From NCBI RefSeq assembly GCF_001274875.1, contig NZ_CP010899.1:1-64000 (forward strand): DNA of 64,000 bases, read 5' to 3'. Made by a program: the position numbers and the translations under genes. Positions 18,859 through 51,589 of the stretch are shown here, in pieces (within the stretch, counting starts at the first letter, position 1; the number at the start of each line of letters is the position of its first letter). The DNA is from Spiroplasma kunkelii CR2-3x (GTDB lineage: Bacteria > Bacillota_I > Bacilli_A > Mycoplasmatales > Mycoplasmataceae). Under the pieces are notes generated by a model, which saw only the letters and a program-made list of their open reading frames with translations, was not told where the DNA came from and made no database searches.

Positions 18859-18941
18859 AACTTTTTTAAATATAAATTAATATTTAAGCACGACAAAAAT
18901 AAAAATTTGTTACAAATATATAATTTATATTTAAAAAAGTT
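18859..18941 (-). terminator. 20-bp perfect hairpin at the transposase 3' end
   Basis: 18859-18878 and 18922-18941 are perfect reverse complements (AACTTTTTTAAATATAAATT-type arms) around a 43-base loop; the inner arm overlaps the transposase stop codon. Either a terminator or part of the element end. Confidence 0.6.
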
Positions 18942-19932
18942 AAATATTAGTATTTTGTAAAAATACCTCTCTGGAGGATAATCAACCTAAACTAGGTCGA
19001 GGCTTTTCATTAATAATTTTCATAACTTTATTAATTTCTTTTTGAGTAACAGTATTAAAATCAGTTCCTTTAGGTAAATATCATCTAATATCTCTATTTA
19101 TTCTTTCAACTTTTGCTTTTTGAGTTGGAGTTCCAGCATCACAAAAATAAACATTTGTATTAGTAATTTTCTCTATCTCTTTTCACTTACTAAATTCTTT
19201 ACCTTGATCTGTAATAATTCCTTTTATATTTACTTTATAAAGTTTATTTTTAAAAATACATTTAAGAGCATTATTAACCTCTTCTGAATTATGTTGATTT
19301 AATTTAAAACAAATAGTATATAAACTCTTTTCTTCCGTAAAAGTTAAACAAGCAGATTGATGATTTTTTCCAACAATACAATCCATTTGAAATCAACCAA
19401 AAGTACCTTTTTCATGTTTTGCTTCTTCAATAAATCTAATATTAGTTAATTGACCACGATCATCTTTTCTTTTTTTTGTTTTATATTTTTTACCTTTAAA
19501 TGGTAATTTTTTCTTAATTTCAATATTTTCATCATCAAAAACTTTATAATCAATATATTTATAAAGTGTCATATGTGAAAATGGAAACTTTTCACTATAT
19601 TTTTTTTCATATTCATAAATAATTAATCTTGGTGAATAACTTTTTTTACTTAAAATTTTTCTTATATAATTTACAACTTTTTTTGTAATTGTTGTATATT
19701 TAATAGATTTTTTACGCTTTCGTTTATAATCTTTATGTGCTTTTTCAGGTTCATATTCTTCTTTAAGTCTTTTAGCCTCTAATCTAATTGTATTACGACT
19801 TTTATTCATTACTTCTCCTATTTTAGAATAATTAGGTGTACCATTTTTCTTTTTAAATGTTTCGCATTCTAAATATTCTTTTAATTTATATCTTTTTTCA
19901 AGATTAAAATGTTTATATTTTTTCTTTTTCAT
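18940..19932 (-). CDS. IS30-family transposase, intact
   Basis: 330 residues, open once TGA is read as Trp (19393, and others near the C-terminus). An N-terminal helix-turn-helix region (KIGEVMNKSRNTIRLEAKRL) precedes a DDE integrase core: first Asp in FQMDCIVGKNHQS near residue 183, second in ITDQGKEF, Glu in KVERINRDIRW. The C-terminal end is NEKPRPSLGWLSSREVF. Such transposases occur both as free IS and inside SpV1 plectroviruses. A decayed relative lies at 40.4-41.95 kb. No frameshift is seen, so it may be active. Confidence 0.9.
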
Positions 19933-19987
19933 AAGATTTGTTCAACCCTTTCTTAATATATATTTATACATTAAAATTAAAATTTTA

Positions 19988-34991: not shown

Positions 34992-35765
34992 TTAAAAAAA
35001 TAATGTAGTTTGGATGCTATTTAATCTTTGTTTTGCTAATTTATAATATTTTTTATTAATTTCTATACCAATTCAATGCCGACTTAATTGTTCACAAGCA
35101 ATAGCAGTTGTTCCACTTCCTAAAAAACAATCTAATACAGTATCGCCAACTTTACTATGTTTATTAATTTGTAATTTAATTAAATTAATATCTTTAACAG
35201 TAGGATGTTTAATTGTTCCTATAAATTGATTATTACTATTTGTTATTTGATAAACAGTCTGCATATCTTGATTTCAAACATTACTATAAGAAATTGGTTT
35301 ATTATAAATATATAAACATAATTCTTTATCTTTACGATATGCATTATTACTAGGTGCATCATTTGTTTTTTGATAAATTATTAATTCAAATTTTAAATTA
35401 TAATTTTCAATTTCAATTAAATATTCTTTTAATTGTTGTTTTGATAAATAAATTATAAAATTTGGTTTTTTAATAATTCGCATTCATTCTTTAAAATATG
35501 ATGGTATATCAAAACTATCAATAAATTCACCTTGTAAAAATTCAAGTTCTCTTTTCCGAATTTGATATTGAATATTAGAACAATTAGGATCTTGCATTTT
35601 TTTTAAATTATATTCAATATGCTTTTCTTTATTTTTTAATTTTTTAGCAATATCGGGGTAAAGGTAAGGTGGATCAGTTAATATTAAATCAATACTTTTA
35701 TTAGGTATTATTTTTAATATTTCTAAACTATCACCTAAATATAATTTACCTAAATTAGTTTTCAT
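34992..35765 (-). CDS. Orphan DNA methyltransferase (adenine-N6 or cytosine-N4)
   Basis: 257 residues. Catalytic motif IV DPPY (DLILTDPPYLYP near residue 35) comes before SAM motif I (VLDCFLGSGTTAIA near 215), the beta-class order. The N-terminus LGKLYLGDSLEIL is typical. Start ATG 35765 overlaps the resolvase end. No restriction partner is nearby, so it likely protects phage DNA or regulates. An almost identical copy is at 48181-48954. Target sequence unknown. Confidence 0.88.
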
Positions 35766-36208
35766 AATTAGCAATAATAATAGCATCACGAAGATGATTA
35801 CTTATTTTTTTCATTATTATAAAATCAACCTTTACGATATTCATAAGTTAATAAATTATCTTTTTCATAAATTGCTGTTATTTGTTGATATTTACTTAAA
35901 TTTTCCATATTTTTAACAACTGATTTAGTATAACGAGGTGATACTCATCAATTAATAGAATACAAAACACATAAAGAACCAAGCAATCTTAATAAATCAT
36001 CGCGGTCTTTTGAACCATTAGCATTTGTATATAAACAATCTTCAACATTAATAAATATCATTGTTTCTTTAATTTTATTATTAATAAACTTGTAGTGTTC
36101 TTTTCAATATTTATTAGTAAATTCATATTTTTTAATTAATTTATTATTTTCATATACAACAATACCTGTAGTACCAGTTCCTGATGGGTCAATACCTACT
36201 TTTATCAT
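35755..36208 (-). pseudogene. RuvC-like Holliday junction resolvase, frameshifted at an A7 tract
   Basis: The N-terminus MIKVGIDPSGTGTTGIV carries the first catalytic Asp; FINVEDC gives the Glu; the usual end NHLRDAIIIANYEN with the last Asp is present but in another frame. In the main frame translation ends at 35798 (136 residues) because seven As (minus strand, 35804-35810) replace the six in the prophage 2 copy (48944-49420), which is fully open. Could be a sequencing error, a phase-variable tract, or rescued by polymerase slippage. Start overlaps the ERF stop (TAATG). Confidence 0.75.
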
Positions 36209-36894
36209 TATCTTAAAAACCTTTCTTTAAATTTATTATAAAAATCTTCATTTTGTCTTCTAATTATAACTGGTGATAATTTTTCAACATTTAATTCTTC
36301 TTTTAATCAAGTTTTACCTCTTAAAATAATATCTTGCTTAATTGTTTTATTTGTAATAAAATCCTTAATATTATTGTAATGTTGATCACTCATTCAATTT
36401 GGATTTAAGTTACTAATAATTTCTTTATTAACTTCATTACTATTTTCTTTACTTATTTCAGTACTATCAGGGTCTAATTCATCAGTTGCTATTCCAAAAG
36501 TTTTACATAATCAATAACGAGCTCCATAAGTTAAAGCACTACCAACTGCTTTTGCCATATCATTATTTTGTGCTGATAAAGTAATTCCTAATTCAATTTT
36601 TTCATTTTCTTTATAAAGTGTTAATAAACCTTTTGAATAATAAGTTATTACTATTTTCTCACCATCTTTACTTTTAACAGTATTGTTAATAAATGTTGGT
36701 TCACCTATACTTTCTATTGTGTATGTTATCTTATGTTCTTTTAATTTTGGTTTTAAAACTTTATATAAATCACTTTCAGAAAAATAATTATATTTATTAA
36801 AATCATTTCGTGCATTTTTATTAACAAAAATGGTTATATCAGATTGTATTTCACCAATACTTTCAATTAATGTTTTTTTAGTTTCTTGTGGCAT
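36208..36894 (-). CDS. ERF-family single-strand annealing protein
   Basis: 228 residues. N-terminal helix and VLKPKLKEHKITYTIES; the ERF signature follows, GSALTYGARYWLCKTFGIATDELDPDS near residue 120. Promotes annealing during phage replication/recombination together with SSB and nuclease upstream. Replaced at the same locus in prophage 2 by RecT. Overlaps the nuclease gene by 17 bases. Confidence 0.85.
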
Positions 36895-37531
36895 TTTCTC
36901 ACTCCTCTTTTTCTTGTCATATTAAAATAGCATTTTTAATTTGTTCTAAATCTTGTTTAGTAATATTAACTTTTTCTTTAATTACTATTTTTAATTTTGG
37001 ATTAATAATTATCATTAATATTTTTTTACTATTTATACAAAAGTCTTTTTCTAATAAATAATAAAGTTTTAATTGTCAAATATAACGCTTAATATCAGTT
37101 TTTTCATTAGAACTAGTAATTTTTCAATCACATATTATATATTCATTATTTATTGTTATGCCAATAAAATCAGTTGTACCACACATTAAAGGATTATAAA
37201 GTGTTTTTTCAGTTTCATAATATTTAAAGTTAATATCTTTAAAAGTTTCTTGATATAGTTTTATAAAATTTTTAAATAATTCACGATGTGATTTTATATC
37301 ACAATCAATAAACTCAATTAATTCATTATCAAAATTATTTTTTATTCAATTATCAATCATATTATGTAAACATATTCCACGAGTTTGTGCTAATTTTAAA
37401 ATATTCTCATCAATTTGCGAATAATCTTTTGGTATTAAAATATTAACAATTTGACTAACACTTGGGATTAAAATGCTATATTTATGTAATTTATCATTAT
37501 AAATATATAAAGGTTTTAAATCTAATCTCAT
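36878..37531 (-). CDS. PD-(D/E)XK-type exonuclease (putative)
   Basis: 217 residues. Motifs seen: an N-terminal S-x-S-Q start, G-x-x-x-H (TRGICLHNMID) near residue 55, CGTTDFIG with Asp near 110 and CDWKIT near 123, matching the D...D/E-x-K core of RecB/Cas4-like phage nucleases. With ERF and SSB it forms a recombination cassette. Reading through TGA at the C-terminus gives the end EENATRN. Catalytic assignment is by motif only. Confidence 0.7.
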
Positions 37532-37968
37532 AAAATTGTATCATCCTGATTTTCAAATAATTCTTTTGTTTCTACTTCTTCTAAACGAATATTTCTTGGT
37601 ATTAATTGGGTTTGATCTGTTATGTTTGGTGTTATAGATTGTATATCATTATATGTATCATTATTTAAATTATTCTTAGTTTGTAAAAATTCATAACTAT
37701 AAACTCTTACCATTCAATGTATTTTATTATCTTTATCTTTAAAAGATTGTAAAATACCTTTAATTGCAATTTGACTACCTTTTTGACAATATTGTTGTAA
37801 TACACTTGCTTGTTTATTTCAAACTTGACAAGGAATAAAATCAGTTTCTTTTTTATTTGAGTGTGGTCTTGCCACTGCTAATTGAAAGATAGCATATTCT
37901 TTACCATTATTTGTTTTCTTAATTTCAATATCTTTTGTTGTTCTACCAATAGCAGTAAATTGATTCAT
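37522..37968 (-). CDS. ssb: Single-stranded DNA-binding protein
   Basis: 148 residues with an OB-fold SSB pattern: MNQFTAIGRTTKDIEIKKT, FIPCQVWNKQA, KGSQIAIKGILQS, then an acidic disordered tail ending DDTILWD. The tail lacks the classic DDIPF end, as in many phage SSBs. Overlaps both neighbours by a few bases, indicating tight coupling. Absent from prophage 2. Confidence 0.88.
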
Positions 37969-38246
37969 TATTTCACATCCTTATTAGGTAATTTTTTATA
38001 TAAAGATTTATCTTTTATAATAAAAGTATCTTCTCTTCGACCATTTACATATTGACAATATTCATCAAAATCTTCTTTATATAATTGTTGTTGTTTTAAT
38101 TCAGCAAGTTCATTTTCGTAATATAACATTTTATTTCTAATTTCATATAATTTAAATAATTTATCATCTACATTTGTTTGATGCTTAGAACAAATAAAAT
38201 CTATAATATCTTGTATTTGTTCTATTTCTTTAACTGTTTTTGTCAT
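37968..38246 (-). CDS. Small coiled-coil early protein (92 residues)
   Basis: Helical N-terminus (KEIEQIQDIIDF...) and a conserved C-terminal half YKEDFDEYCQYVNGRREDTFIIKDKSLYKKLPNK that is also found in the 89-residue prophage 2 gene at 51065-51334 with a different N-terminus. Function unknown. TAATG overlaps join it to both neighbours. Confidence 0.7.
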   Translation of the reverse strand: MTKTVKEIEQIQDIIDFICSKHQTNVDDKLFKLYEIRNKMLYYENELAELKQQQLYKEDFDEYCQYVNGRREDTFIIKDKSLYKKLPNKDVK

Positions 38247-39004
38247 TATTTATCCTCCTCAATAATAGTTAATTGGTTTAATTGTTTTTTGGTGATTTTA
38301 ATACCAAATAAATTAGCATCTTCTAAATTAGCACCAATTAAATAAGCATCTTCTAAATCAGCATCTTCTAAATTAGCACCATGTAAATAAGCACCATATA
38401 AATCAGCATCTTCTAAATTAGCACCCTTTAAATTAGCATCTTCTAAATCAGCATCTCCTAAATTAGCACCCTTTAAATTAGCACATCGTAAATCAGCTTT
38501 TTCTAAATTAGCACAGCGTAAATTAGATTTTTCTAAATTAGCACAGCGTAAATTAGCATCTTTTAAATTAGCATCTTCTAAATCAGCTTTTTCTAAATCA
38601 GCACAGCGTAAATAAGCATCATATAAATAAGCACCTTTTAAATTAGCACCTTGTAAATTAGCACCCTTTAAATTAGCATCTTCTAAATCAGCATCTCGTA
38701 AATCAGTATCTTTTAAATTAGCACCCTTTAAATTAGCATATTCTAAAACAGCCCACTCTAAATTAGCATCTTCTAAATAAGCATCTTTTAAATTAGCACC
38801 ATATAAATTAGCGCCATGTAAATTAGCACCAGCAAATCTAACAGCTTTTAAATTAGCACCCTTTAAATTAGCACCTTCTAAATCAGCATCTCCTAAATAA
38901 GCACCGCGTAAATCTAATATTTCACTTTCTAAATATTGATTTAATTTTTCTTGTTCAACTTCAATACTAGTTAAGTCTTTAATAACTTCTTTTAATGTTT
39001 TCAT
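38246..39004 (-). CDS. Pentapeptide-repeat protein
   Basis: 252 residues; after a 28-residue leader (MKTLKEVIKDLTSIEVEQEK) it is almost wholly A(D/N)L-x-x repeats, about 40 in tandem, which would form a right-handed quadrilateral beta-helix of roughly ten coils. The surface is unusually acidic (many Asp/Glu), as in DNA-mimic members MfpA and Qnr that act on gyrase. Whether it targets gyrase is inference. GGAGG lies before the ATG. Missing from prophage 2, where only its last bases survive. Confidence 0.92.
   Translation of the reverse strand: MKTLKEVIKDLTSIEVEQEKLNQYLESEILDLRGAYLGDADLEGANLKGANLKAVRFAGANLHGANLYGANLKDAYLEDANLEWAVLEYANLKGANLKDTDLRDADLEDANLKGANLQGANLKGAYLYDAYLRCADLEKADLEDANLKDANLRCANLEKSNLRCANLEKADLRCANLKGANLGDADLEDANLKGANLEDADLYGAYLHGANLEDADLEDAYLIGANLEDANLFGIKITKKQLNQLTIIEEDK
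38290..38930. repeat. Tandem 15-bp coding repeats
   Basis: About 40 near-identical 15-bp units (GCATCTTCTAAATTA-type on the + strand) encoding the pentapeptides; slippage-prone. Confidence 0.9.
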
Positions 39005-39005
39005 A

Positions 39006-39143
39006 TTATAATTCCTCCAAATTCTTTTTCATAATTAATGTCTCAATATAGTCATAAGCACTCTCTTCTGAATGACATTCTTCTAATGCTTCATTAAATA
39101 AATCTTCTTCAGTATAAATATTTCCATTTTCATCTTTTCACAT
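39006..39143 (-). CDS. Small acidic early protein (45 residues)
   Basis: MWKDENGNIYTEEDLFNEALEECHSEESAYDYIETL..., strong AAAGGAG 10 bases upstream. The open frame continues upstream without a standard start through a hydrophobic helix (ISSISSLFTLSFLIYGI), so a longer membrane form may once have existed. Confidence 0.55.
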
Positions 39144-39271
39144 ATTATTTATCTCCTTTAATTTTTTGATTGCTTTTTCAGTTCTAGTAATTTTGTTTAT
39201 TCCATATATTAAAAAAGACAATGTAAATAAGGATGAAATAGATGAAATAATATTAATGTTGGTGTACTCAT
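39144..39271 (-). other. Remnant small membrane ORF
   Basis: ATG 39271 with GGAAAT upstream gives 20 residues (MSTPTLILFHLFH...). One base shift gives a membrane helix plus basic tail running into the next gene. Likely a frameshifted small membrane protein. Confidence 0.3.
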
Positions 39272-39272
39272 A

Positions 39273-39437
39273 TTATTTATTTCCTTTTCATTCAATATCT
39301 TTTAAATCAATAATTGCCGTTGATAAGCCATAATTATTATTTTCAATTTTTTCTCGCACTTTTGCTTCTTCTAGTGTGTAATAAGCATAAGTAGTTAAAT
39401 ATTCATTTTTAATAATTAATAAGTATTTTTTAGTCAT
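39273..39437 (-). CDS. Small early protein (54 residues), unknown
   Basis: MTKKYLLIIKNEYLTTYAYYTLEEAKVREKIE...; beta-hairpin then helix. Preceded by AGGAGGAATTA. No homologue in prophage 2. Confidence 0.55.
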
Positions 39438-39450
39438 AATTTAATTCCTC

Positions 39451-39582
39451 CTAATTCTTTTTAGTATTTAATGCTCAATGTTCATCAGTAATTTCATCGT
39501 GTGTAATAATATATTTATTTTGTTTATTACATTTAAAGCAATAACCTCAATATCTTTTTTTAAAACATATTTTCTTTTTCAT
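39451..39582 (-). CDS. Small zinc-ribbon-like early protein (43 residues)
   Basis: MKKKICFKKRYWGYCFKCNKQNKY... with CFKC; first gene of the early operon. AAAGGAG lies about 15 bases upstream, somewhat far. Confidence 0.5.
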
Positions 39583-39613
39583 AGTTATTTTTAAATTCTC
39601 CTTTTTACAATTA

Positions 39614-39658
39614 ACTACAAAGTACTACAATGTTCTACATTTTGTAGTTACTTGTAGT
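39614..39658. promoter_or_regulatory. Operator-like dyad at the head of the early operon
   Basis: ACTACAA at 39614 and 39624, then TTGTAGT at 39642 and 39652: two direct copies on each arm, each 10 bp apart, symmetric about 39636. The spacing of one helical turn is typical of a dimeric repressor site. Confidence 0.55.
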
Positions 39659-39770
39659 ATTAAGTACCTCCTCATCAAGTCCCCACTAGTAGATTAATTA
39701 AGAAATCCCTGCCCAGTTCTTAAAAGTTATTCAACCTCTACGCACACGATTTTATTTTTATCCTTGCAAT
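39659..39770. other. Early leader region, no gene seen
   Basis: Between the operator dyad and the RNA candidate; contains TTGATGAGGAGG on the minus strand but no convincing start codon or frame. Confidence 0.4.
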
Positions 39771-39954
39771 TAATAGTTATGAATGCACCACTACGCGTCT
39801 ATCTTAATCAAAGTCATTAATTTACAAAATCGCAAAAAAACAAGTTAACAGCTCTAATGGTTTCATGCCGGCGGAAATGCCTTGTTGGGGAACCTTCCCT
39901 AAAAAATATGTAATTTTAAATTAAACACTTGTAGAGCCAATATATTTAATTTTT
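39771..39954 (-). ncRNA. Candidate structured leader/small RNA, copy 1
   Basis: 184 bases identical to 51364-51547. On the minus strand: possible promoter TTGAAA (39969-39964), 19-base spacer, TATATT; then GCUCUA (39937-39932) can pair with UAGAGC (39856-39851) around GC-rich hairpins (GGGAAGGUUCCC and GGC...GCC). ACAAGU (39932-39927) can pair with ACUUGU (39845-39840), which runs into seven Us. The two stems share base 39932, a switch-like or pseudoknot layout. No open frame. Confidence 0.5.
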
Positions 39955-39971
39955 AGAGTTAATTTTCAAAT

Positions 39972-40004
39972 AAAAAAACCAACCCAATAAGGGTCGGTTT
40001 TTTT
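39972..40004. terminator. Prophage-end terminator, copy 1
   Basis: AAAAAAACCAACCC, 5-base loop, GGGTCGGTTTTTTT. Pairing is complete on the minus strand (G-U), with one mismatch on the + strand. Copy at 51743-51775. Confidence 0.85.
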
Positions 40005-40031
40005 GTCCTACTTCATCCTTTATTCTACATT

Positions 40032-48180: not shown

Positions 48181-48954
48181 TTAAAAAAATAATGTAGTTT
48201 GGATGCTATTTAATCTTTGTTTTGCTAATTTATAATATTTTTTATTAATTTCTATACCAATTCAATGCCGACTTAATTGTTCACAAGCAATAGCAGTTGT
48301 TCCACTTCCTAAAAAACAATCTAATACAGTATCGCCAACTTTACTATGTTTATTAATTTGTAATTTAATTAAATTAATATCTTTAACAGTAGGGTGTTTA
48401 ATTGTTCCTATAAATTGATTATTACTATTTGTTATTTGATAAACAGTCTGCATATCTTGATTTCAAACATTACTATAAGAAATTGGTTTATTATAAATAT
48501 ATAAACATAATTCTTTATCTTTACGATATGCATTATTATTAGGTGCATCATTTGTTTTTTGATAAATTATTAATTCAAATTTTAAATTATAATTTTCAAT
48601 TTCAATTAAATATTCTTTTAATTGTTGTTTTGATAAATAAATTATAAAATTTGGTTTTTTAATAATTCGCATTCATTCTTTAAAATATGATGGTATATCA
48701 AAACTATCAATAAATTCACCTTGTAAAAATTCAAGTTCTCTTTTCCGAATTTGATATTGAATATTAGAACAATTAGGATCTTGCATTTTTTTTAAATTAT
48801 ATTCAATATGCTTTTCTTTATTTTTTAATTTTTTAGCAATATCGGGGTAAAGGTAAGGTGGATCAGTTAATATTAAATCAATACTTTTATTAGGTATTAT
48901 TTTTAATATTTCTAAACTATCACCTAAATATAATTTACCTAAATTAGTTTTCAT
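48181..48954 (-). CDS. Orphan DNA methyltransferase, copy 2
   Basis: 257 residues, one visible residue difference from the prophage 1 copy (Asn for Ser in the DAPxNNAY segment). Same DPPY and FLGSGT motifs. Conserved open although the surrounding prophage is decayed. Confidence 0.88.
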
Positions 48955-49420
48955 AATTAGCAATAATAATAGCATCACGAAGATGATTACTTATTTTTTC
49001 ATTATTATAAAATCAACTTTTACTATATTCATAAGTTAATGAATTATCTTTTTCATAAACTGCTGTTATTTTCTGATATTTACTTAAATTTTCCATATTT
49101 TTAACAACTGACTTAGTATGGCGTGGTGATACTCAATTAATTTCAAGTTGTAAATCATTTAATTTAATTTCTAATGCACCTACTAATCGTAATAAATCAT
49201 CTCTATCTTTTGAACCATTAGCATTTGTTGGTAAACAATTTTCAATACTAATTTCATATGAATTTTTATATCTAAATTCAGAAAATACATCTATTATAAA
49301 TTTTAATTGTTTTAATCAATTATTATATATAATTTCAATTTTTCTAATAACTTTATTATCTTCATATACAACAATAGCAGTAGTACCAGTTCCTGATGGG
49401 TCAATACCTACTTTTATCAA
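48944..49420 (-). CDS. RuvC-like Holliday junction resolvase, intact
   Basis: 158 residues from TTG 49420: IKVGIDPSGTGTTAIV (Asp), EISIENC (Glu), then WVSPRHTKSVVKNMENLSKYQ and the C-terminal NHLRDAIIIANYEN (Asp). A6 here keeps the frame that the prophage 1 copy loses. The frame is also open upstream to 49537, in line with a RecT-like C-terminal tail, so a fused product is possible. End overlaps the MTase start. Confidence 0.75.
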
Positions 49421-49533
49421 GTTGCTCAATCCTCATCGTTCGTTATTATTAACTACTGGTGTTACATTTGATATATCATCTTCTTTAACGACATTATCAT
49501 TTGTGTCTGCTATTTCTGGATAAGATGGGGTAT

Positions 49534-50274
49534 TTATTTATTTGATAATGGTTCATCGCTAATTTGCCCCTTATTTTTGGCGAAATTAATATCTTTAAAT
49601 GAAATATATTCAAAATTACCATCTTCTTTAATTTCTTTTTCATCTAAATCAATATCAGATATATCAAGCCCTATCTCTAATGCTAATTTACGATATAATT
49701 TTGCTTCAACCATTTCTTTTGGTCATTTATTTCAAGGTGAATATTCACTATTTCCACTCGGACTACTATTTTTTAATCGTTCAATATCTGCTTTTCTTAA
49801 TAAAATACCTTGATAATTACCATTTTTATCTTTTGCAAAAGCATAAGCACCAATAATCTCATTATAATCACTAGTATTTGCATTAAAATTAATTTCATGT
49901 ATTTTAGGACATGAATTTAAACTATCTCATTCAAATTTCTCACCTTTAAAAATAATTGCTTTTCTTGGACTATATCCTGCTTCTTCAATTCTTTTACAAT
50001 AAACTTTGCTATCAATAACAGTAGTTAATTTATTTTTAAATGGAATAATATTAAAATCTTTTCCAAAAATTAACCCTTTATTACTTAATTTAATAATACC
50101 TAATGCTGTAATTTTAGTATTATCAGCAGTATTAACTAACTGCATATAACTTTGTCCATTTTTCATTTTTAATTCTTCAAGTGCTAAAATATTTTCTTTT
50201 AAATATTTATCATTAACTTTTAATTCATATTTAATAATTGCACCTTTAATATATTGTTGTAATTCAGTTATCAT
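49534..50274 (-). CDS. RecT-family single-strand annealing protein
   Basis: 246 residues. Typical RecT plan: KYLKENILALEELKMKNGQSYMQLVNTAD near residue 25, ALGIIKLSNKGLIFGKDFNIIPFKNKLT and SPWNKWPKEMVEAKLYRKLAL near 185. Ends in TAA at 49534; the expected acidic tail continues in another frame toward the resolvase, so the C-terminus has probably suffered a frameshift. The gene before it ends 1 base upstream (TAA-A-ATG). Confidence 0.8.
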
Positions 50275-50275
50275 T

Positions 50276-51064
50276 TTATTTCACTCCTTTATTTATTTTG
50301 AATTTAATACCTTTAATACCAATAGTATTAGTATTTACATTACTATCTCATTGTGCTTTAATTTCATTTTTAACAATTTTTTCATCAATAACTAAATAAG
50401 TTTTAATTAATTGAACTAATTCATATTGATTAGCATTTTCTAAAAAATCATTATCAATGCCCAGTATTTCAATATCTTTTATTAATATTTTTTCTTTTAT
50501 TAAATTAATACCAACTTTTTTTAATTCTTTTTGTTCTAATGATTTATCAATTTGCTCAATTTGTTCCATTACACGAACTTGTTCATCTTGAATTTGGTCT
50601 ATATCAAGACCCATCTCAGGTGTTAAATTATTTGTTTTTTCAATTAATTCCTGTTTTTTTAATTCTTGTTCTTTTAAAAACTCTTGTTGCTTTTGTATGC
50701 GTGCTTGCGTCATATTATTATTAATTTCAACTCTATATCTTTCAATATAATTTCTATAATTAGTAATTATTTTTCCAATTCTATTATGTTCATCTAATAA
50801 TTTTTGAATAAGTTCTAATCATTCTTTAAAAACAAAATTATTTTTAGTAATAGCACTTGGAATATCTTTTAAATATACATTTTGATAACCATTTAAAGCA
50901 TAATGATTAATATGTCTAAAAATATACTCAGTTAATTCTTGTTTATTTTCTTCTTTAAATTTTTGAACATTATATGCTAAAATACTTTCATTTTTAAAAT
51001 CATCTACTTTTAAAGGAAAATGAAATGTAATATTATTTACTGTATTTTTTACAATATCACTCAT
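50276..51064 (-). CDS. RecT-associated early protein (262 residues), unknown
   Basis: MSDIVKNTVNNITFHFPLKVDDFKNES..., then a long Gln/Glu/Lys coiled coil (about residues 115-165, KQQEFLKEQELKKQELIEK). Genes of this size with coiled coils often precede recT in phages. AAGGAGG before the ATG. No counterpart in prophage 1, so it came with recT. Confidence 0.7.
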
Positions 51065-51363: not shown

Positions 51364-51547
51364 TAATAGTTATGAATGCACCACTACGCGTCTATCTTAA
51401 TCAAAGTCATTAATTTACAAAATCGCAAAAAAACAAGTTAACAGCTCTAATGGTTTCATGCCGGCGGAAATGCCTTGTTGGGGAACCTTCCCTAAAAAAT
51501 ATGTAATTTTAAATTAAACACTTGTAGAGCCAATATATTTAATTTTT
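51364..51547 (-). ncRNA. Candidate structured leader/small RNA, copy 2
   Basis: Identical to 39771-39954 over 184 bases. Here it lies between a small zinc-ribbon gene and the early operon. Both possible long-range stems and the U7 run are retained. Confidence 0.5.
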
Positions 51548-51589
51548 AAAGTTGTTTTATAAAATTTAAGGTTTTAAAAAAACAAAATT

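What the first reader, a model, noticed from the sequence alone, without database searches (positions are those of the whole stretch)
39771..39954. Identical 184-bp switch-like RNA candidate at both prophage early operons
39771-39954 and 51364-51547 are identical although their flanks have been rearranged. On the minus strand, upstream of the early genes, GCUCUA/UAGAGC and ACAAGU/ACUUGU can each form, share base 39932, and the second 3' arm runs into U7. That is the layout of a terminator/antiterminator switch or a pseudoknot. Internal hairpins are GC-rich in a very AT-rich genome. No riboswitch or phage RNA class I know fits.
Basis: partly seen in the sequence, partly recalled or inferred. 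Interest (0 to 1): 0.62.

Follow-up and report, generated by a model that had tools for sequence, protein, structure and literature searches.

The report
Swappable RNA leader in Spiroplasma prophages
The repeated 184 base pairs are part of a roughly 300-base-pair control region at the start of the early genes of a common Spiroplasma phage, a slot in which related phages carry either this sequence or an unrelated, clearly folded RNA that is in no RNA catalogue; the folding switch first proposed is not supported.

Summary
Confirmed: 39771-39954 and 51364-51547 are identical. But the genome holds 16 copies, and the conserved unit is larger, about 39979-39560, standing out from diversified prophage flanks (mean pairwise identity 0.88-1.00 inside, 0.45-0.85 outside). 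It lies between a hairpin at the prophage end and the first early gene of a tailed phage related to Spiroplasma phage MaM-2019a.

The proposed GCUCUA/UAGAGC and ACAAGU/ACUUGU switch fails: across 14 variants no compensatory change, every change breaks a pair, and the 5' arms lie in a promoter-like sequence. Other hairpins (GGGA/UCCC, AACAA/UUGUU before U7) vary almost only by G-U-keeping changes, suggestive only.

The stronger result is around it. Related prophages carry in exactly this slot, between homologous flanks, an unrelated leader ('type A') with a covariation-supported pseudoknot (98% paired; score 0.265 against 0.092 shuffled), in more than 100 copies, including phage-particle genomes and absent from Rfam. 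Best reading: the window element ('type B') is the alternative allele of an exchangeable early-operon leader RNA, probably regulatory. Function is untested.

The parts
39560..39979 (-). island of high identity among 12 of the 16 genome copies (mean pairwise identity 0.88-1.00, 1.00 at 39800-39859)
39660..39960 (-). type B leader module: the stretch replaced by unrelated type A RNA in related prophages (limits approximate, from where homology of the flanks ends)
39771..39954 (-). the reported stretch, identical to 51364-51547
51364..51553 (-). second window copy, lacking the 3' part of the module (39770-39660) and the small early genes that follow elsewhere
39969..40005 (-). bidirectional terminator-like inverted repeat (AAAAAACCGACCCTTATTGGGTTGGTTTTTTT) between the variable outer flank and the module
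   Evidence: sequence directly (the strict terminator scan does not list it)
   Evidence: the number of such matches in the region is not above chance
39888..39899 (-). candidate 5' hairpin GGGA/UCCC of the leader RNA; all its changes keep pairing through G-U
39834..39886 (-). candidate terminator-like stem AACAAG/CUUGUU with inner GGC/GCC hairpin, followed by U7
   Evidence: no compensatory changes
39676..39842 (-). 3' half of the module; also found on its own (84% identity) in another genome, upstream of an ORF that looks like a different phage's terminase
   Evidence: proposed helices show no covariation
39614..39658 (-). ACTACAA/TTGTAGT inverted-repeat array, the right flank shared by type A and type B leaders
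39451..39582 (-). first small early gene (43 aa), the usual next gene after either leader type
34992..39437 (-). rest of the early operon: 54 aa, 71 aa, pentapeptide-repeat protein, 92 aa, SSB, exonuclease, ERF, RuvC-like, DNA methylase
   Evidence: RuvC-like by resemblance to the annotated MaM-2019a gene

Best explanation
The repeat is part of an exchangeable leader module of about 300 bp at the head of the early operon of a tailed Spiroplasma phage of the MaM-2019a kind. It contains the early promoter and encodes an untranslated leader RNA ('type B') read on the minus strand. Related prophages carry in the same slot an unrelated, pseudoknotted leader RNA ('type A'). The module most likely controls early-gene expression: transcription starts near 39900-39912, the first 65-70 nt fold into a short hairpin plus a terminator-like stem ending in U7, and most transcripts would stop there until conditions change. 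Shown: copies, position, conservation island, sharp slot exchange, covariation-supported structure of type A. Inferred: promoter use, that type B is transcribed and folded, the attenuation step, and equivalence of function between A and B.
For: 16 copies, those with recognisable genes beside them mostly at the head of early genes; conservation peak centred on the leader, not on the genes; left and right flanks of type A and type B leaders are homologous (e.g. 89% and 100%; 84% over 242 nt and 96%) while the 300 nt between show no match; all 19 early-operon loci of this phage kind fetched through an exonuclease or RecT gene contain type A; type A pseudoknot with 30 cells changed on both sides, covariation 0.265 against 0.092 shuffled, 98% paired against 23-66% when slid, and further covarying stems such as CGCUU/AAGCG, CACUU/AAGUG, CGCAA/UUGCG and a variable terminal hairpin; in the type B hairpins 11 of 12 variable cells keep pairing by G-U on the minus strand; the -10-like hexamer varies only at its third base among the copies compared, apart from a 4-nt insertion in the two S. 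citri-like copies.
Against: No double compensatory change in any type B helix; folding energies ordinary; the strict terminator scan does not flag the AACAAG/CUUGUU stem; in some variants other folds are slightly more stable; promoter-like matches are as frequent as in shuffled sequence; no transcript data.
Confidence: 0.5

Rival explanations
1. RNA immunity module: the two leader types are alternative immunity specificities. A short RNA released from the leader by early termination acts in trans on leaders of the same type, as CI RNA does in phage P4, keeping early genes off in lysogens.
For: Sharp allelic exchange of the leader between otherwise homologous flanks is how immunity regions behave; the 5' part of type B resembles a 65-70 nt RNA ending in U7.
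Against: One chromosome carries 16 type B and about 9 type A leaders together, which tolerant or decayed prophages could explain; no complementary target pairs were tested; no expression data.
Confidence: 0.17
2. A stand-alone structured phage RNA with a role unrelated to the operon below it, comparable in kind to ROOL or GOLLD, that merely sits at this locus.
For: Type A is large, pseudoknotted and has optional peripheral domains; ROOL and GOLLD are structured RNAs of phages and prophages with unknown function (PMC12286853).
Against: Type A and B are 300-400 nt, not in Rfam, with no tRNA genes in the window; the constant position directly ahead of early genes suggests a link to them.
Confidence: 0.15
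3. A DNA element, such as a replication origin, packaging site or operator region, conserved as DNA; the hairpins are incidental.
For: Very high identity without compensatory changes in type B; an ACTACAA inverted-repeat array adjoins it; the 3' half occurs alone upstream of another terminase-like gene.
Against: The alternative in the same slot is clearly an RNA; type B variable cells are G-U-keeping on the minus strand.
Confidence: 0.13
4. One reading: GCUCUA/UAGAGC competing with ACAAGU/ACUUGU.
For: The arms are complementary in most copies and the second is followed by U7 (sequence directly).
Against: Zero covariation, every change breaks a pair, arms overlap a promoter-like sequence.
Confidence: 0.05

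Closest known systems
Spiroplasma phage MaM-2019a (OL689226, OL689227, OL689230; phage-like particles of S. poulsonii)
   Same: Same kind of genome: early operon with SSB or RecT and RuvC-like protein, opposed late genes, IS30-type transposase near the leader; type A leader at the equivalent place.
   Different: Carries type A, not type B; the RNA is not annotated and hypothetical proteins are drawn over part of it.
Phage P4 CI RNA / P1 c4 RNA immunity leaders (from memory)
   Same: Untranslated leader of a replication or early operon, possible early termination giving a short RNA.
   Different: No complementary targets or trans action tested here; no known sequence relation.
ROOL and GOLLD RNAs (PMC12286853)
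   Same: Phage and prophage encoded, complex structure with pseudoknots in type A, function unknown.
   Different: Smaller, no Rfam match, no tRNA neighbours in the window, fixed place ahead of early genes.
HK022 put antiterminator RNA (from memory)
   Same: Structured leader of a phage early operon.
   Different: No terminator to read through was found inside the early operon apart from one match inside a coding gene; no sequence or structure relation tested.

Membership tests
Any Rfam 15 family | covariance score at or above the gathering threshold | tested here: not met
   for type B; for type A
Terminator/antiterminator switch as proposed | two mutually exclusive helices maintained by compensatory change | tested here: not met
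Intrinsic attenuator leader | promoter upstream, GC-bearing hairpin followed by a U run, before the first gene | tested here: inconclusive
   elements present in sequence but the strict terminator scan does not flag them and transcription is unknown
Type A Spiroplasma phage leader RNA (defined here) | pseudoknot core Pa/Pb/Pc, model R1 | tested here: not met
   window type B has no significant R1 match and no profile match
P4-like immunity RNA | short trans-acting RNA complementary to sites in its own leader | not tested
   no transcript data; no target search made
ROOL/GOLLD | match to the family covariance models | tested here: not met

The most novel reading that the evidence does not exclude
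Spiroplasma phages of the MaM-2019a kind control the early operon, and perhaps lysogeny and superinfection immunity, through an RNA-only leader locus with at least two unrelated, freely exchanged RNA alleles, one of them a new pseudoknotted RNA family with more than 100 copies in eight genomes.
Probability: 0.25. Interest if true: 0.78.

Novelty: new variant of a known kind. Interest (0 to 1): 0.55.

Why it matters
How tailed phages of Spiroplasma, which fill the genomes of plant pathogens and insect symbionts, control their genes is to my knowledge unknown. A locus where two unrelated RNAs replace each other ahead of the same early genes would be a natural experiment on what the RNA does, and type A is a well supported structured RNA family, absent from Rfam, over part of which a phage record now draws hypothetical proteins.

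Tried and rejected
Rfam scans of both leader types (no match). Folding-energy z-scores: uninformative, since the covariation-supported type A leaders also score near or above zero. My own five-helix model for the 3' half of type B: pairs well but shows no covariation. Type A model R1 on type B copies: two weak matches in L020 and L033 fall inside a methyltransferase-like gene and are taken as chance. R1 on pattern hits outside named Spiroplasma records: only weak matches (23 bits or less), except L249, a viral contig at 71 bits whose source I did not look up. Possible shared architecture of A and B by eye: not convincing. Antitermination of internal terminators: none convincing found. Type B pattern in viral contigs: none. 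First regular-expression count of type A stems failed through a faulty pattern and was redone.

Full report
Observation. The two stretches 39771-39954 and 51364-51547 are identical. A search of the whole genome finds 16 copies, 15 of them at 97% identity or more, and further copies in three other genomes of the genus and on a Spiroplasma citri plasmid.

Anatomy. On the minus strand the order is: variable outer flank, terminator-like inverted repeat (39969-40005), in many copies a 38-aa zinc-ribbon-like gene, the module, an ACTACAA inverted-repeat array (39614-39658), then small genes and an early operon with pentapeptide protein, SSB, exonuclease, ERF, RuvC-like protein and methylase, or RecT in place of the SSB-exonuclease-ERF set. 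Late genes (terminase, portal and others) run the other way. The closest phage record is Spiroplasma phage MaM-2019a, whose contigs were assembled from phage-like particles according to PMC12453411.

Limits of the element. Among 12 copies of this genome the mean pairwise identity is 0.69-0.73 outside 39979, 0.88-1.00 from 39979 to 39560, and 0.85-0.45 below (0.00 in one bin where the first copy has an insertion). The 184-bp figure comes from the second window copy being broken at 51364. One copy (L016) has lost the stretch from the -35-like hexamer to the T run.

The proposed switch. Their 5' arms lie in TTGGCT-16-TAAAAT (39940-39913). Such promoter-like matches are no more frequent here than in shuffled sequence; the argument for this one is its position and the variation of the -10-like hexamer at its third base. 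Alternative hairpins (GGGA/UCCC at 39899-39888; AACAA/UUGUU at 39886-39839 before U7; GGC/GCC) have 11 of 12 variable cells kept by G-U pairs on the minus strand; relatedness makes the number of independent events smaller, perhaps five against one by eye. Helices proposed for the 3' half pair in 98% of cells but do not covary.

The slot. Fetching other early operons of the same phage kind through exonuclease and RecT genes showed another leader in the same place, with the same flanks. BLAST between type B and type A leaders gives matches to the left (e.g. 84% over 242 nt, 89% over 65 nt) and to the right (96% over 53 nt, 100% over 55 nt, 86% over 259 nt) and nothing over the roughly 300 nt between. 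Of the 20 loci fetched, 19 are of this phage kind and all 19 carry type A; the twentieth, L151, is not the same phage. Some further loci around broken RecT genes had no type A match; I did not examine them.

Type A. Twenty-six distinct gapless cores of 59 nt support three helices forming a pseudoknot: GUSGU/ACSAC, AAGUS/SACUU (also GUGUC/GACAC) and YAUC/GAUR, with 98.1% of cells paired, 30 cells changed on both sides, covariation score 0.265 against 0.092 for shuffles, and 23-66% paired when slid. The structure was chosen on these sequences, which favours it over the slid versions; and the counts of pairs with double changes and of pair types do not exceed shuffles clearly (111 and 73 of 500), so the weight rests on the cells changed on both sides and the score. 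Four cores with insertions of one or two bases were left out to keep the alignment gapless. Further stems covary: CGCUU/AAGCG, CACUU/AAGUG and CGCAA/UUGCG; terminal hairpins AGAGAG/CUCUCU, AGACAUA/UAUGUCU, GGUGUA/UACAC (read by eye, without a shuffled control). A model of the core finds more than 100 matches in eight genomes of the genus at E below 1e-8 (10 listed for the own genome, 9 of them strong) and one marginal match (E 0.009) elsewhere in the family. Rfam has no match for it.

What it does. Position, conservation and allelic exchange with an RNA make a regulatory leader RNA the best reading of type B. I commit to early-operon control by attenuation at the U7 run as the single most likely mechanism, at about even odds for the leader-RNA statement as a whole, and less for the attenuation step itself. 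An immunity RNA, a stand-alone phage RNA and a DNA site remain open.

Known kinds. It works like a leader regulatory RNA; it is not a member of any Rfam family tested, nor of the type A family. P4 CI and HK022 put are comparisons from memory, not tests.

Noticed in passing
L154:3036-3094 (-), L168:1946-2382 (-), L199:19547-19605, and about 100 further places: Type A: a pseudoknotted RNA family not in Rfam at the head of early operons of MaM-2019a-type prophages.
   Followed up: yes
L198:667-1050 (OL689226): The phage record draws hypothetical proteins over part of the type A RNA.
   Followed up: partly
L080:8930-9110 (-): The 3' half of the type B module alone, upstream of an ORF that looks like the terminase of a different phage (by eye; the family search for it failed), whose relatives are very numerous in these genomes.
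   Followed up: partly
L020:1896-2600 and L033:1897-2400: In S. phoeniceum PmM2021 the type B leader is followed directly by what looks like a C5-cytosine DNA methyltransferase gene instead of the 43-aa gene.
   Followed up: no
window 38219-39000: Pentapeptide-repeat protein gene with a 15-nt DNA period, 34 registered copies.
   Followed up: no
window 35798-37968 against 48944-51064: Exchange of SSB/exonuclease/ERF for RecT modules between prophages that share the same leader.
   Followed up: partly
window 18940-19971; L199:17566-18741: IS30-type transposase beside the prophage and inside the MaM-2019a genome, a possible integrase.
   Followed up: no
window 39614-39658: ACTACAA/TTGTAGT inverted-repeat array between leader and first gene, possibly operators.
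   Followed up: no
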